Assembly: GCA_026397475.1 (NCBI GenBank)
Contig: JAPLUT010000003.1
Span: forward strand, 1 to 48,789
Length of the DNA: 48,789 nucleotides
Direction: 5' to 3'
Source of the DNA: a candidate division SR1 bacterium
GTDB taxonomy: Bacteria > Patescibacteriota > Gracilibacteria > Absconditabacterales > Absconditicoccaceae
In this document: piece after piece, positions 5,874 to 48,789 of the stretch
Layout of the letters: every line of letters begins with the position of its first letter
How positions within the stretch are numbered: the first letter of the stretch is position 1
Made by a program: the position numbers and the translations under genes
Notes under the pieces: model-generated
What the model saw: only the letters and a program-made list of their open reading frames with translations
Database searches by the model: none
Told to the model about the DNA's origin: nothing

Positions 5874-8096
5874 CTAAAATACTGGGCAAGCATATGATCA
5901 TCTATTTCACTTATATAATCATCTTGATGACCTAGAACCCAATCTTAATAATTGCGATTTACCTTCTCATGAAGGATCTATTTTTTCTGTTTTAAAACTA
6001 AGCTGGAATCATCTCGCTACAGCCGTTTCCGTATTGTTAAGAGAAATTGTTTTTTCTTGCGTCACAGTTTCTGTCTTTATGACATCTAAATCTAATGTCG
6101 CATACTGCCATTCCTTGAACGCATTTTTAATCTCTTCTTCGTTGGGAACTTTTTTGTTTTTTTCTGTTAATTGACTAACTAATTCTTTTCTTGTTGGTCA
6201 GTTCACTCCGTAACTTACATCAAAAGTAGTTCCTTGTTTTACCTTGTCCGGCAAGCTTAGAACATAATCAGCAAAACTTGCAGATCTATTATAAGCTAGA
6301 TCTGGATTATTAGAAACGTTTATATCGCCCGCTTGATTGACAGGCGGAACTGCATTTACTTTTGTTCATGAAAAAACAAATGGCGTTTCATTTTTATATG
6401 TCGTATAGTTTTTACTTGCTGATCCGTACATTTTACCACCAACAATTTTGTAGTCCTTATTATCTGGACTCAACAATTGTTTCATACGCGGATCTGCATC
6501 ACTCAAGAGCTGATTGATTTTAGCGCCATCTCATATGCTATTTGCGCTAAGCTCTTTTAATTCTAAATGGATTTTTTGTGGAACCTCCTTTGTCTCTATG
6601 CTTTGAATCTGAACATCCGCTATCCCAGCAATTTGATTTAATTTAAAATCAACTTTTCATCGTCCATTTGCGGGATCTTTTACAAAGTCCTTGATCTGAT
6701 TGAACACCACAGCATTGTCTGATCATGCCGGAACATTTATTTGCACATTCCCATTTTTTATATATGAATTTATACTATCTTTTATACTAGACTTAGAAGA
6801 TTCTATGGATTTAGTCCTTACGGTCTCTCACAATTGTTTAGTATATAATCCGGTAGTATCCTTACTTTCTTCTATCGTTTTTATACCTGATTCATTTGTA
6901 GCGGAGACTATTTTAGCCCCATTGAAAGCCCTAACCGGTTCGCTACTTTTTGCATTTTTATCTTGTACTTTTTTTCGAATATCTTCAAGGATAGTTTTGT
7001 TTTTGTCGGAATTAATTACCAATGCCAAAGTATTAATATCCTTCGTGCTTGTTTCTTTTAGCATCGATTCAAACTTCGCCTTTTGTAGTGTGTCATTGTT
7101 TTTTGTTGCGAATTCCTGCAATAAGAATCATCTATTCTCTTCTGCTATTCTGTCATTCAAAGCATGTGTTATTTCTTTTTTAAATGAGGTATTTATTTTT
7201 TCTTTATGAGCATAATTTAATTTTATATCTTCATCTTTATACGTGTTTATAATACTATCTATCTGATTAGACAAATCAGAAGCAACATCATTTTTTTCTT
7301 TTTCATCAAAATCATATTCTGATAATCCCTTATCGGTTATCTTTTTCATGGCTTCTTTTAGCTGTCCCTTTTTGTATTCCATCTCCAACTTTTCTAATCC
7401 TGGAATATTTAACTTATTTGTTTGCAATAAACTATAGTCTTTGCTGAGTAAGGCTTGCAATGCATGGGAACTAAAGTGCCCCTCCTTTGACATATCTAAT
7501 CCTGCATCAAAATATTTTTGTATTTCTCCTTTATCTATCTTAGCGTTCTTTTTAAGAGAATCTATGAGTCCCGTATCATTGATTTCATTTTTATATTTCT
7601 TATTAATATATGCATCAACTACATTTTTATAAAATTTTTCATCCTTCATATCCTCCTTAAGAAGATTAATTTTATTCGCCTGCAATGGCGCATTTATTGA
7701 TGAGGGGAGAGAAACTAATGCTCATGAAGCCTGCATATAACTCAAAATAGCCTCTGTTTTACTCACATTCTCTCTGCTTAAATTATTGTCCTTGAGTCAT
7801 GCAGCAATTCATTCTATTATTTTTGAGGAATTATCATGAATGAATTTATTGAACTCTGGCATACTTGCATTGTTTTGAATATATTCAAATATCTTATTGG
7901 TTTCGTTGGTATCAATTTTTTTGTCCTCAAGTTGTTTTTCTATAAGCTCTTTAGCTGCTCTGAAGGAAAGGTTATTTTTCACTGCAGCATCAAGCTTTTC
8001 AGGATTTCCCTTCACGATCGTTTCCAAAGATTTATCCTCCACACGAGGCGCTTCTACAGGTTTTTCTTCTTTATTTAATATTTCTCATCCTCCCAT
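5874..8096 (-). CDS. Hypothetical 740-aa protein, possible OmpA-like C-terminal region
   Basis: One frame from ATG 8096 to TAG 5874 with UGA read as Gly. The first 480 residues or so are lysine- and asparagine-rich helical sequence with no membrane segment. From about residue 500 the character changes to short beta-like runs; a stretch near residues 610-690 contains LAYNRSASFADYVLS, GTTFDVSYGVNGPTR and EWQYATLDLDV, which loosely recalls the N-R-A...G-x-G...N-R-R-V layout of OmpA-like peptidoglycan-binding domains. I would not assign this without a profile search. The last 40 residues are rich in UGA-encoded Gly and Arg. The 111-aa gene lies 28 bp upstream, so the two form an operon like the one at 2658-3944. 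Confidence 0.7.
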
Positions 8097-22653: not shown

Positions 22654-23757
22654 TTATGCGGACAATAAGCTGTCCCGTATTATCTTTTTTGCATGAGAAA
22701 TAATGCTTCTCTTGTCTTTTTGTATACGATTTTTTTTGAATCCCTTGAAGTGTTTGATAGCGTTACCTAGTTGTGCTTCAAAATCATGATCTCTTTGGTT
22801 AATCATAACATCATTGTGACATCTTACATACCATTTTGCATTTTCATATTGATCATGGGTTCGTGGGATAGGGATGATAATTTGTTTCATGTCATATAGT
22901 TTCTGTTCAGCTAGGGATGTTGTTCATCCACGGGTAATCGTAATATCACAGGCATTATACAATTCTCCCATTTTTTTTTGGCTTACAAAGCCATAAGTGT
23001 GTACATGTGGGAACTTGTCAAAGTGTGTCGACATCTCATCACTGAGCAGTCACAAAACAATAAAGAAATCGTATCCTGAGGACAGATCAGGAATAAATTC
23101 TAATATATGAAGAATGTTCTGATATAATCTTTTAGACCCTTGAGATCATCATACAATGAGAACTTGTGTTTTTGTGGTAAACTCAGGATGTGCATCAATA
23201 ACAATATCATCAGACAATATCTGTCCCACGGTTTGTGATCATAACAATGTTCACTCAAATCAGGTAAAGACCTTTTTAGCAAAACGACTAGCAATTTTGT
23301 TGACTAAGCCTGGACGCGTATCTGATTCATGAACAACAATCTTTTTGCGGAGGAGCGTAGCGGCAATAACTACAGGTAAAGCCACATATCCTCACTTACA
23401 AAATACAATATTGATGCGATGATAGAGGAGATGAAATATTGATTGAAAACATCAAATTATAAATAAAAAGAAATCAGAAATGTTTTTGAGCTTAGATCTT
23501 CGATAACTTTCTCTACGATATTTTCATGAATAGATTGGAACGAAAACAAGCTTGTGGGCAGCATTATCCTCTTGAATATCAGAGCATACCTGTTGTTCAA
23601 GGCTTTTCTTTGCTCAAAATCGATATATTTTCTCTACCCTATCCCCATATTCTTTATTTTTATACAAAAACTCTAACAAACTTCTTATTGGAAATACATG
23701 ACCTCAGGTTCCTCACCCCGCCATAGCAATTCTTAGCCTTTTCTTTTTGTCCTCCAT
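22654..23757 (-). CDS. murG: MurG, lipid II-forming N-acetylglucosaminyltransferase, 367 aa
   Basis: MurG transfers GlcNAc to lipid I to make lipid II at the inner face of the membrane. The start ATG 23757 gives RIAMAGGGTGGHVFPIRSLL, the N-terminal glycine loop in which UGA encodes Gly 15 and Gly 18. FCKGGYVALPVVIAATLLRKK, VVHESDTRPGLVNKIASRFA, VLIVGGSQGSKRLY and ITRGGTTSLAEQKLY are the family motifs in the right order, followed by PIPRTHDQYENAKWY. The length is normal. The regulator gene upstream ends 18 bp before this start, so the two are co-transcribed, and a terminator follows. An operon of murG with a HigA-like regulator rather than with other mur genes is unusual. Confidence 0.96.
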
Positions 23758-23775: not shown

Positions 23776-24087
23776 CTAAAAATCTTCGAATACCTCGTGT
23801 TCTTTTGTTTTCTGTTTTTGAGAAAAGAGTTCCTGAATTTTTTCAACCATACTTGCTTTGGCAAGAACGTAGTCAAAATTATTTTGAAGTTTGATTCGTT
23901 TTTGTTCTGGATTTTCAAAAACCACGGACAATAAAATATCCCATTGAATGGTAATATTTCTTTTTCATTTGATCAATTCATTGACCTCAGAAATTTTCTT
24001 TCAGATCATACTGGCAAATTTTTTTTGCGTCAATCATCTGCTAGTAAGTTCTTGTTGAAGAATTTGTCCTGGATGTTGAAACTCCAT
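23776..24087 (-). CDS. HigA-like HTH regulator upstream of murG, 103 aa
   Basis: MEFQHPGQILQQELTSRGLTQKKFASMIGKKISEVNELIKGKRNITIQWD matches the HigA/VapI antitoxin-type Xre helix-turn-helix: the HPG opening, the helix-turn-helix LTQKKFASMIG...SEVNELIKGKR, then LLSVVFENPEQKRIKLQNNFDYVLAKA. Glycines in the recognition region are UGA. No HigB-like toxin gene is adjacent, and the next gene, 18 bp downstream, is murG. Four palindromic sites lie 26-270 bp upstream of its start, consistent with autoregulation. It is either an orphan antitoxin used as a repressor or the survivor of a toxin-antitoxin pair. Confidence 0.85.
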
Positions 24088-24113
24088 AATCTCTTGTTTG
24101 CTAAAATAAATAA

Positions 24114-24354
24114 TTATACAATTCTATGAATTAGTGAACAACGATAGATTAACAATTTGCACCATCAAATCAAGAGACAATTCACCAATTATACGAACTA
24201 GTGAATCTCTATTTTCATATATAATATATACTATATATTATATACATTGAAATACACAGAAAAGTTCACTGGTTATATAAATCAGTGAACCACTAAAAAT
24301 ATTGTTCTCTCAGAAAATAATATGAATAATTTACTATTTATATGAAATAGCGAA
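24114..24354. promoter_or_regulatory. Four-copy 25-bp operator-like palindrome array
   Basis: Four 25-bp near-palindromes start at 24114, 24181, 24265 and 24330, at distances of 67, 84 and 65 bp. The best copy (24265-24289) reads TTCACTG, an 11-bp TTATATAA-centred core, CAGTGAA; the consensus is TTCACyrrTTATAyrAAyyAGTGAA. The copy nearest the regulator has a decayed left half. The spaces between copies are unrelated AT-rich sequence containing possible -10 boxes. Confidence 0.8.
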
Positions 24355-24493: not shown

Positions 24494-25192
24494 TTACATT
24501 AAGCCCTTGGTGCAGAAATCTTTGTTTAAATCTTCCAGAGATATTTTATCATGAATTAACTGCCCTTTGTGCTTTAATAAAAAGTTAGGCCATGCTTGTT
24601 GGCCAAAAAGCCTTCTTTCTTCTTCATTTACACTACCACCAATATTATCATCAGTTGTGAATCCAGAGATAAGGTCATTAACAATAAGCATAAATTCGTC
24701 CTCATAAAACTCAAAACGAGTAAGTTCCTTTACAATTTCATTATTCACTGCTTCAGTGAATTTTTGTGCGTCATCCTTGTAGGGCCTTACGCTACCCAAG
24801 AGACTTGAAATTAATGGATATACGTAACGATGTTTAATTTTTGCAGTCCCTATTTTTTCATATAAAAAATTTCCAAAAACCGTCTTTCTTGTATCAAGAA
24901 AAACTCTTGCTTTTTTTTCTTTAAGAAGCTTTAATTTATTTTCTTCTTGTAGCGTACGTTCTTTTTTATTTTGTAAATCATTTAATTCTTTATCAATCTT
25001 ATTTGTATTTTCTGTTAATTTGATTCTTAGGTCATTCATTTGATTACAAAAAGCCGTAGCACTAAAATAATGAGGAATCATCCTTTCCCATATTTTCAGA
25101 AAGCCTTCTTTGTCTTTTTTATGAAGATACTCTATTGCTAGCTCCCTTGTTATCGGAACAAACGAATCTTGACCTCATACTACATTTATCAT
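24494..25192 (-). CDS. Hypothetical protein, 232 aa, coiled-coil in the middle
   Basis: Starts at ATG 25192 (MINVVGGQDSFVPITRELAIEYL) and ends at TAA 24494-24496; the only UGA is in the start region (residue 6). Residues about 55-105 form a charged coiled coil (LTENTNKIDKELNDLQNKKE). The C-terminal half is mixed helical with FYEDEFMLIVNDLISG and QQAWPNFLLKHKGQLIHDK. There is no signal peptide or membrane segment. I do not recognise the family. Its 3' end lies about 140 bp before the operator array on the same strand, so part of the array may also influence readthrough from it. Confidence 0.75.
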
Positions 25193-25289
25193 ACTATGAC
25201 GGTATAATCAAATAAATATGTAATGAGTATATTCAGATTTTGTAAAAAGTCAAATTTTCATATGTCCTATACAGGTATTTTATTGTTTT

Positions 25290-29345: not shown

Positions 29346-29675
29346 ATTTATCTTTCGATAAAATAAAAAACAGACTTATTTTTTATTCTTTCTCTCTATA
29401 GTGGTCGAATACGTACTTTTTCCATATATTCAAATCAACCCATAGTGTATAGGATATTTTGGCTCAACATCAAGCCAAAATGCCACTTTTTTATTATAAT
29501 TCATAGTGAGTTTGGCTTGTGCCCACCACCTAAGAAGTTATGGGGTAAAAATAAAAATGTTTCCATAAATAAATAAAAAGTCAAATTGTTTTGTTTTTGA
29601 TGTGCCCAAAATTTGCAAATTTTCTGTTTCTGAGTACAATTATAAATGTATTTTACATTACTAGATCTTTGAAAA
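29346..29675. other. Divergent intergenic region between LCP and pilT
   Basis: 330 bp without a gene. It contains the hairpin TTTTGGCT-caacatca-AGCCAAAA (about 29457-29480) and, at its right end, the pilT promoter. No terminator-like T run follows the hairpin on either strand. Confidence 0.6.
29613..29640 (+). promoter_or_regulatory. Promoter of the pilT operon
   Basis: TTGCAA (29613-29618), a 16-bp spacer ending in TTTCTGAG, and TACAAT (29635-29640). The spacer end and -10 box match the promoters at 2598 and 8539. Confidence 0.65.
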
Positions 29676-47210: not shown

Positions 47211-48789
47211 GTGCTGCCAAGGAGAAACATATTATTTAAGCTGAAATATATTATAGGGACCGTTGTTTTCTCTTTTTTTCTGATTAGTTTTTCAACTCAG
47301 GCATCAATAACTATCCCTGATAGTATTGCCAATGTCCTTCAAATTGTCCAAAGACTTCTTGTTACAGATAATGGGAATACTGATGGAAGTCCAATTATTG
47401 ATCTTAATACGGGATGAAACATTGTCGTTTATTGACCACTAAAAAATAGTTTGGGACAATCGTTTATCACTACAGAAACAGATCCGATATTTTCTGCAAG
47501 TTATGCGGCATGAATTACTTCTACACAAATCTCTCATTGGAACTCTGCTTATTGACGAGGAAATTATGCTTTGATGTGATATCTTACCTGAGAAGCTGAT
47601 CCCATTTGGAATGCAGATAAATCATTATATTACACAAAAACAGACGTGGATAATATTGTCTCCTGACTTGCAGGATGATTGTTATATAAGTGAGTTTGGG
47701 ATTATTCTACCGGTAGTTTGCCTTCTGATATTATTATTGGTGATTTATATATTGTTTCTAGCTCATGAAATTTTTATTGATTTGATTTGTCAGTTGGAGA
47801 TATGATTATTGCCAATAATGATGTTGTTGGCTCTAGCGTTTCTACAGATCGGGATGTTGTAAGAAACGTAAGTAATCCTGAGCTTGATCCAATATTTTCT
47901 GCAAGTTATGCGGCATGAATTACTTCTACACAAATTTCTCATTGGAACGATGTATATTCTCGATGAAATCATACTTTGATGGGATATCTTACGTGAGAAA
48001 CAGATCCGATATGGAACATAGAGAAATCTAACTATTATACTATCTCAGATATAAATGCAAAGTGATATCTTACATGATATGCTGAAACTGATCCTACATG
48101 GAATATGGAAAAATCTAATTATTATACTACAGGACAAATAAATGCGATGGGATATCTTACTAATTATGTAGAAACTGATCCTACATGGTTAAGTGAAAAG
48201 CCTAATTATTATACAAGTTTTCAAATAGATACTTTGTTGAGTTGATTGGTCCTTTCTGGCTGAGGTGCTTGAGGCGTTTGAGCAACAGGAGCCCAGGGTA
48301 TACAAGGTATCCAAGGAAATACTTGAGCAATGTGAAATACTTGAGCAACGTGATTGAATTGATTAGATTGAGTTGACTGAGTTGCTTGAATAAATGGAGC
48401 TACTGGTGCTGTTTGACCTACATGAGCACAAGGTATTCAAGGTATACAGTGATCAATAGGAAACACTTGATCAATAGGAAACACTTGATCACAAGGAATT
48501 CAATGAAATACTGGTGCGAAATGAGATAGTTGAACGATGCTTGATTATGAACGATCAGGAACGGAACTAAGATTTTGATATCTATGAGTACGATGATGAT
48601 TCACTAATCTTATAGGACCACAAGGTATACAAGGAATACAGGGTATACAAGGAATACAAGGAAATACTTGAGCGACTGGAGCAACGGGAGCCGTTTGAGT
48701 AACTGGCGCACAGTGAATACAATGAATACAATGATTAACATGAAACACTTGATTGCAAGGTATACAAGGAAATACTTGATCACAAGGTA
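47211..48789 (+). CDS. Collagen-like secreted surface protein with tail-fibre-type repeats (3' end outside window)
   Basis: GTG 47211 is the first possible start after an in-frame TAG at 47199-47201 and gives a signal peptide (KYIIGTVVFSFFLISFSTQA). Residues about 90-340 hold imperfect repeats: two copies of TDPIFSASYAAGITSTQISH (63 bp nearly identical, 405 bp apart) and four copies of a block like GYLTGETDPIWNIEKSNYYT. From about residue 345 the protein is a Gly-X-Y collagen-like run (GIQGIQGNTG, GATGAQG), broken once by TMLDYERSGTELRFGYLGVR. Most of the triplet glycines are UGA, so in the standard code the gene would hold dozens of stops. The protein is presumably a surface fibre or adhesin; similar repeats occur in phage tail fibres. 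Confidence 0.9.
47481..47948 (+). repeat. Direct 63-bp repeat inside the collagen-like gene
   Basis: 47481-47543 and 47886-47948 differ at only two positions. They encode the same TDPIFSASYAAGITSTQISH unit. Recombination between them would remove 135 residues in frame. Confidence 0.8.

What the first reader, a model, noticed from the sequence alone, without database searches (positions are those of the whole stretch)
23776..24354. HigA-like regulator in an operon with murG, behind a four-copy operator array
Four 25-bp palindromes at intervals of 65-84 bp precede a HigA-like gene that has no toxin partner. Its next gene, 18 bp on, is murG. An antitoxin-type repressor apparently controls peptidoglycan precursor synthesis, which would suit a cell that depends on a host. 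Multiple sites suggest cooperative binding or looping.
Basis: partly seen in the sequence, partly recalled or inferred. Interest (0 to 1): 0.65.

Follow-up and report, generated by a model that had tools for sequence, protein, structure and literature searches.

The report
Toxin-free HigA repressor with operator array
In a family of tiny host-dependent bacteria, a protein related to antitoxins has lost its toxin, appears to bind a row of DNA sites in front of its own gene, and always ends in the same short tail that probably docks something unknown; it sits next to a cell-wall gene only in part of the family.

Summary
Four 25-bp sites (starts 24114, 24181, 24265, 24330) precede a 103-aa HigA-like gene (code 25) with no HigB toxin found, and murG starts 18 bp after it. 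Relatives are Absconditabacteria (SR1). There, 27 of 49 genomes of the window's family carry this orthologue; 25 of 25 tested form one clade (99/98) apart from 24 toxin-linked or other HigAs. All 26 with readable upstream DNA have 2-7 sites (110 against 2.1 expected). In 29 family genomes the sites occur in higA promoters (13 of 13) and never outside coding sequence where the gene is missing (0 of 15). The site is TTCACT-N13-AGTGAA with an inner TTC-N3-GAA, or half of it, TTCACT-N5-AGTGAA: two overlapping dimer sites 8 bp apart, as published for P. aeruginosa HigA and GraA. Free positions do not covary, which speaks against an RNA hairpin. The murG part is weaker: direct adjacency in 11 of 27, and murG promoters without higA have no sites (0 of 14). 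New: 27 of 27 end in [VI]FxxF-COOH after a linker of variable length. Best reading: a domesticated HigA autorepressor whose tail takes an unknown input; murG is co-controlled in some genera.

The parts
23776..24087 (-). higA-like XRE/HTH_3 regulator, 103 aa, code 25 (TGA=Gly at residues 18, 29, 41)
   Evidence: 27 orthologues in 49 genomes of the family
23779..23793 (-). codons of the C-terminal VFEDF, the [VI]FxxF-COOH motif
   Evidence: 27 of 27 orthologues; 0 of 24 other HigAs
22654..23757 (-). murG (Glyco_transf_28, both domains), 18 bp downstream of higA
24114..24138 (-). operator 1 (proximal, -51 from the start codon; one half degenerate where it overlaps a TATAAT)
24113..24118 (-). TATAAT, candidate -10 box overlapping operator 1
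   Evidence: same arrangement in G001, G007, G008
24181..24205 (-). operator 2 (-118)
24265..24289 (-). operator 3 (-202), perfect outer half-sites
24330..24354 (-). operator 4 (-267)

Best explanation
A domesticated, toxin-free HigA lineage of the Absconditabacteria (SR1). The protein binds as dimers. Each 25-bp site is two 17-bp dimer sites overlapping with an 8-bp offset, so it would hold two dimers; an array of 2-7 such sites covers the higA promoter and gives steep negative autoregulation. Where murG follows directly (the window's genus and a few others) it is read from the same transcript and is held down too. The HTH domain carries a linker of variable length that ends in an invariant [VI]FxxF-COOH peptide; in place of a toxin, an unknown partner (a protease adaptor or an envelope or other sensor protein) probably grips this tail and sets repressor level or activity. 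Shown: sites, their conservation and link to the gene, the clade, the tail, the gene order. Inferred: binding, repression, co-transcription, tail docking.
For: Sites: 110 vs 2.1 expected in 26 upstreams. In 48 genomes, 33 of 39 matches within 2 mismatches lie in higA promoters, against 5 matches of the reversed control (4 of the other 6 are inside long ORFs). Half-site spacing takes two values: exact k=5 20 times, k=13 28 times, k=23 twice, nothing else from 0 to 30; with one mismatch 63 and 60, others at most 6. Free positions do not covary (28 of 83 vs 28.3; 33 of 83 vs 32.0). Two genomes have TTGACA-N16/17-TATAAT directly 5' of the proximal site; in the window a TATAAT overlaps it. HigA fold: pLDDT 90, best hits PDB PA4674/HigA. 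Clade 99/98, tail columns not used. Tail 27 of 27. Other HigAs: 4 weak sites in 24 x 600 bp.
Against: No binding or expression data. In 15 of 27 genomes murG is not directly downstream on the same strand (one more, G008, is cut by contig ends). Perfect consensus promoters next to a site are seen in only 2 of 26 upstreams; elsewhere AT-rich DNA makes calls ambiguous. The site pattern was refined on these same loci, so its enrichment is partly circular, though shuffles, reversed controls and genome-wide specificity stand apart from that. TIGR02607 is below its cut-off for the window protein (38.2 vs 47.7).
Confidence: 0.72

Rival explanations
1. An ordinary type II antitoxin whose toxin is unrecognised (the upstream ORF or an unlinked gene).
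For: HigA fold; [quoted passage not shown] the upstream ORF 24494-25261 has no family.
Against: Relatives of the upstream ORF appear at this place in 5 genomes only, all in the window's genus, while the regulator is in 27. PF05015 is absent from the window's genome and 8 congeners. Toxin-linked HigAs form a separate set and lack the tail.
Confidence: 0.1
2. The 25-bp repeats work as RNA hairpins (terminators or attenuators), not as protein sites.
For: They are inverted repeats in an intergenic region.
Against: No covariation at positions 7-19 and 8-18 in 83 sites; positions 12-14 pair less often than in shuffles (17 vs 33.4); 17-bp variants with an 8-bp logic.
Confidence: 0.04
3. A dedicated regulator of peptidoglycan precursor supply: murG is the real target and autoregulation is secondary.
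For: Adjacency in 11 of 27 genomes, gaps 6-154 bp, over several genera.
Against: 0 of 14 murG upstreams without adjacent higA have sites; gene and array persist in 10 genomes where murG is not next to them; murG is convergent in G036. murG has its own conserved neighbours (LTD, csaB) also in genomes without higA.
Confidence: 0.1

Closest known systems
Pseudomonas aeruginosa HigA (PA4674) and P. putida GraA on their operators (PMC6987408, passages read; PDB 6jpi, 6lb3, 6fix)
   Same: HigA fold; operator made of overlapping palindromes; two cooperative dimers on opposite faces of the DNA; autorepression; PaHigA also binds promoters of unlinked genes
   Different: They have a HigB/GraT toxin and one operator region; here no toxin, 2-7 operators, and a tail of variable length ending in FxxF
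Vibrio cholerae HigA2 (PMC11006873, passages read)
   Same: HigA with a disordered arm that modulates operator binding; dimer on a 17-bp operator fragment
   Different: The arm is N-terminal and neutralises HigB2; a single operator
M. tuberculosis HigA2 (PMC11205783, abstract and outline read)
   Same: Antitoxin acting as a wider transcription regulator
   Different: Next to higB2; eight further sites in the genome rather than one array
Orphan HigA antitoxins in marine genomes (PMC12654330, passages read)
   Same: HigA genes without a recognised toxin are common
   Different: No array, tail or lineage analysis in the passages seen

Membership tests
HigA family (TIGR02607 / HTH_3) | HTH_3 domain over gathering score | tested here: met
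   26.7 vs 23 bits
HigA family (TIGR02607 / HTH_3) | TIGR02607 equivalog score at or above cut-off | tested here: not met
   38.2 vs 47.7 bits for the window protein; 25 of 25 orthologues match at E<=0.001, their scores against the cut-off not listed
HigA family (TIGR02607 / HTH_3) | HigA fold | tested here: met
   AF2 pLDDT 90; the 26 PDB matches at E<=0.001 are HigA-type or HigBA entries
Type II toxin-antitoxin module HigBA | adjacent HigB/RelE toxin gene | tested here: not met
Type II toxin-antitoxin module HigBA | neutralises a toxin | not testable with these tools
   needs an assay
PaHigA/GraA-type double-dimer operator | two overlapping palindromes in one site | tested here: met
   spacing classes k=5 and k=13
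PaHigA/GraA-type double-dimer operator | cooperative binding of two dimers | not testable with these tools
   needs ITC, footprint or structure
RNA terminator or attenuator | compensatory changes in the stem | tested here: not met

The most novel reading that the evidence does not exclude
The array is not only a promoter switch but a single-locus nucleoprotein hub: many HigA dimers with flexible arms, each ending in FxxF, gather one partner at one chromosomal place, for instance to hold an origin-side region in cells that mostly lack ParB. Hints: ParB_N found in 1 of 10 genomes; sites essentially only at this locus; in complete genome G033 the array (1.100 Mb) lies beside a broad GC-skew minimum from about 1.12 Mb to past the end of the 1.178-Mb record. 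The hints are weak: the minimum is broad, dnaA is 285 kb away, and the window has no excess of DnaA-box-like sites.
Probability: 0.07. Interest if true: 0.85.

Novelty: new variant of a known kind. Interest (0 to 1): 0.52.

Why it matters
It shows an antitoxin-type repressor that lost its toxin, apparently once, and then stayed with its operators through much of a bacterial family, and carries a conserved tail of its own. That gives a clean case for how toxin-antitoxin parts become house regulators in reduced genomes, and the FxxF tail gives a concrete bait for finding the partner that replaced the toxin. In the genera where murG follows, it is a testable candidate for control of lipid II synthesis in uncultured, host-dependent bacteria.

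Tried and rejected
Rejected: RNA hairpins (no covariation). A wider regulon: 3 extra 25-bp matches in G001, G003 and G007 lie in one conserved coding gene, and one in G012 lies inside a long ORF; one extra in G010 C26 is intergenic or in a doubtful ORF near a contig end and stays open; one in G054 was not examined. Phage origin: a viral-contig scan gave no relative. Operators shared with toxin-linked HigAs: only 4 weak sites in 24 upstreams. Upstream ORF as toxin: no family and absent from most orthologous loci. Origin function: GC skew too broad to decide. Promoter scan: too noisy in AT-rich DNA except L065 and L066. Literature searches whose listings named no paper on this group.

Rows dropped: L073 (G024) has no upstream and was left out of site counts. 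G026 and G031 were not in alignment A1, so the tree has 25 of 27; their tails were read. Duplicate paralogue loci (L084=L141, L085=L142) were counted once. Two of 59 skew samples read N.

Full report
What is there. The window is one contig (C5) of a 1.17-Mb genome, G000, read with TGA=Gly (ORFs). Relatives found by sequence are SR1/Absconditabacteria, among them RAAC1_SR1_1 (CP006913), which matches G033 in contig length and place. On the minus strand: rnc, secF, rluA, an unassigned ORF (24494-25261), a 406-bp gap with four 25-bp sites, the HigA-like gene (23776-24087), 18 bp, murG (22654-23757), an LTD-like protein, a csaB-like gene, comEC (the names rnc, secF and comEC are by recall from sequence and gene order, not from a family hit).

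The protein. HTH_3 26.7 bits over its cut-off of 23; TIGR02607 antidote_HigA 38.2 bits, under its cut-off of 47.7. AlphaFold2 from 25 orthologues gives pLDDT 90, and the 26 PDB matches with E<=0.001 are HigA-type antitoxins or HigBA complexes (PA4674, P. vulgaris, E. coli, Nostoc, Coxiella).

The lineage. A profile search of 118 genomes finds strong matches (E<=4e-36) in 27 of 49 genomes of the window's family and in 0 of 69 others; the next match is 7.6e-26 and is a copy with a HigB-like ORF beside it. Several complete or nearly complete family members lack it (among G012-G020). In a tree of 25 of these and 24 other HigAs, built on about 80 residues without the tail, the 25 are one side of a 99/98 branch. 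At least 8 of the 24 others sit next to a HigB/RelE-like ORF, counting weak and cluster-only cases; the partners of the rest were not examined.

The sites. Of 27 loci, 26 have 600 bp of upstream; all hold 2-7 sites scoring at least 13/18, in total 110 against 2.12 in dinucleotide shuffles. In 48 genomes the 25-bp pattern with up to 2 mismatches occurs 39 times: 33 in higA promoters, 3 in one conserved coding gene, 1 inside another long ORF (G012), 1 near a contig end in G010, 1 not examined (G054); the reversed control occurs 5 times. Of 29 family genomes in that call, 14 have the gene: 13 have sites and the other (G024) has no upstream sequence; of the 15 without the gene none has a site outside coding sequence. 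Close relatives keep the spacing: 65-84-67 in the window (from distal to proximal), 65-83-68-66 in G001, 65-83-66 in G008.

The logic of the site. Counting TTCACT-Nk-AGTGAA over all k from 0 to 30 in the upstreams gives k=5 (20 exact) and k=13 (28 exact), k=23 twice and no other; with one mismatch 63 and 60, others at most 6. The difference of 8 bp, and the inner TTC and GAA at positions 9-11 and 15-17 of the 25-mer, mean that a 25-mer is two 17-bp dimer sites that overlap. Published structures show this arrangement for P. aeruginosa HigA and GraA: two cooperative dimers on opposite sides (PMC6987408, passages). The unconstrained positions do not covary, so this is a protein site, not an RNA stem. 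The proximal site is 40-53 bp before the start codon in many loci. In G036 and G028 it follows a perfect TTGACA-N16/17-TATAAT at once; in the window's genus a TATAAT overlaps it. This fits repression.

murG. It is directly downstream on the same strand in 11 of 27 (G000, G001, G004-G007, G010, G024, G026, G033, G041; gaps 6-154 bp; in G026 murG is interrupted); G008 is cut by contig ends on both genes. In G022, G028, G031 and G039 one or more opposite-strand ORFs lie between; in G036 murG is convergent; in 10 genomes it is not next to higA. The order murG-LTD(-csaB) is also present in genomes without higA, and no murG upstream of the 14 examined has sites (2 of these 14 upstreams are only 86 and 103 bp). 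So murG is a neighbour that probably shares the transcript in part of the family.

The tail. All 27 end in [VI]-F-x-x-F-COOH. The stretch between HTH domain and tail is 18 to 199 residues, 69-89% of polar or helix-breaking types (on the 25 of A1). Of 553 ORFs of at least 80 aa in the window and 40 loci, 26 end in [VILM]FxxF: 25 are these HigAs and one is a 91-aa ORF. None of 24 other HigAs has it; many of those end in alanine. A fixed end on a free linker is the mark of a docking or recognition peptide. What it meets is unknown; protease recognition or a sensor protein are the main options.

Verdict.

Noticed in passing
24744-24760: A perfect 17-bp unit (TTCACT-N5-AGTGAA) inside the upstream ORF 24494-25261; G007 has one at the matching place in its own copy of that ORF (C44:584-600). 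It may be a far operator or a kept coding stretch.
   Followed up: partly
L053 (G010 C26:6004-6028 and 6134-6150): A 25-bp site (1 mismatch to the pattern) and a 17-bp site 130 bp apart after comEC, near a contig end, away from the higA of that genome: a possible second target.
   Followed up: partly
24494-25261: Fast-changing ORF without any family hit, found beside the array in 5 genomes, all of the window's genus.
   Followed up: partly
29346-29645: GC skew turns from negative to positive near 29-30 kb, where lytR-type and pilT-like genes diverge; no excess of DnaA-box-like sites in the window.
   Followed up: partly
G000, G001, G005, G013, G017, G022, G033, G037, G041: No ParB_N domain found in these 9 of 10 family genomes searched (G021 has two hits).
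   Followed up: no
L080-L088, L135, L138: Toxin-linked or other HigA paralogues of this family often end in ...LALA, LAVA, VAVA or AYA, a little like protease tags.
   Followed up: no
L130:1479-2546 (G018): A HigA-type HTH fused to a domain with an HELGH motif, probably a zinc peptidase of ImmA/IrrE type (by recall).
   Followed up: no
47211-48788: Collagen-like Gly-x-x repeat protein at the contig end, with 48 TGA-coded glycines in the part seen.
   Followed up: no
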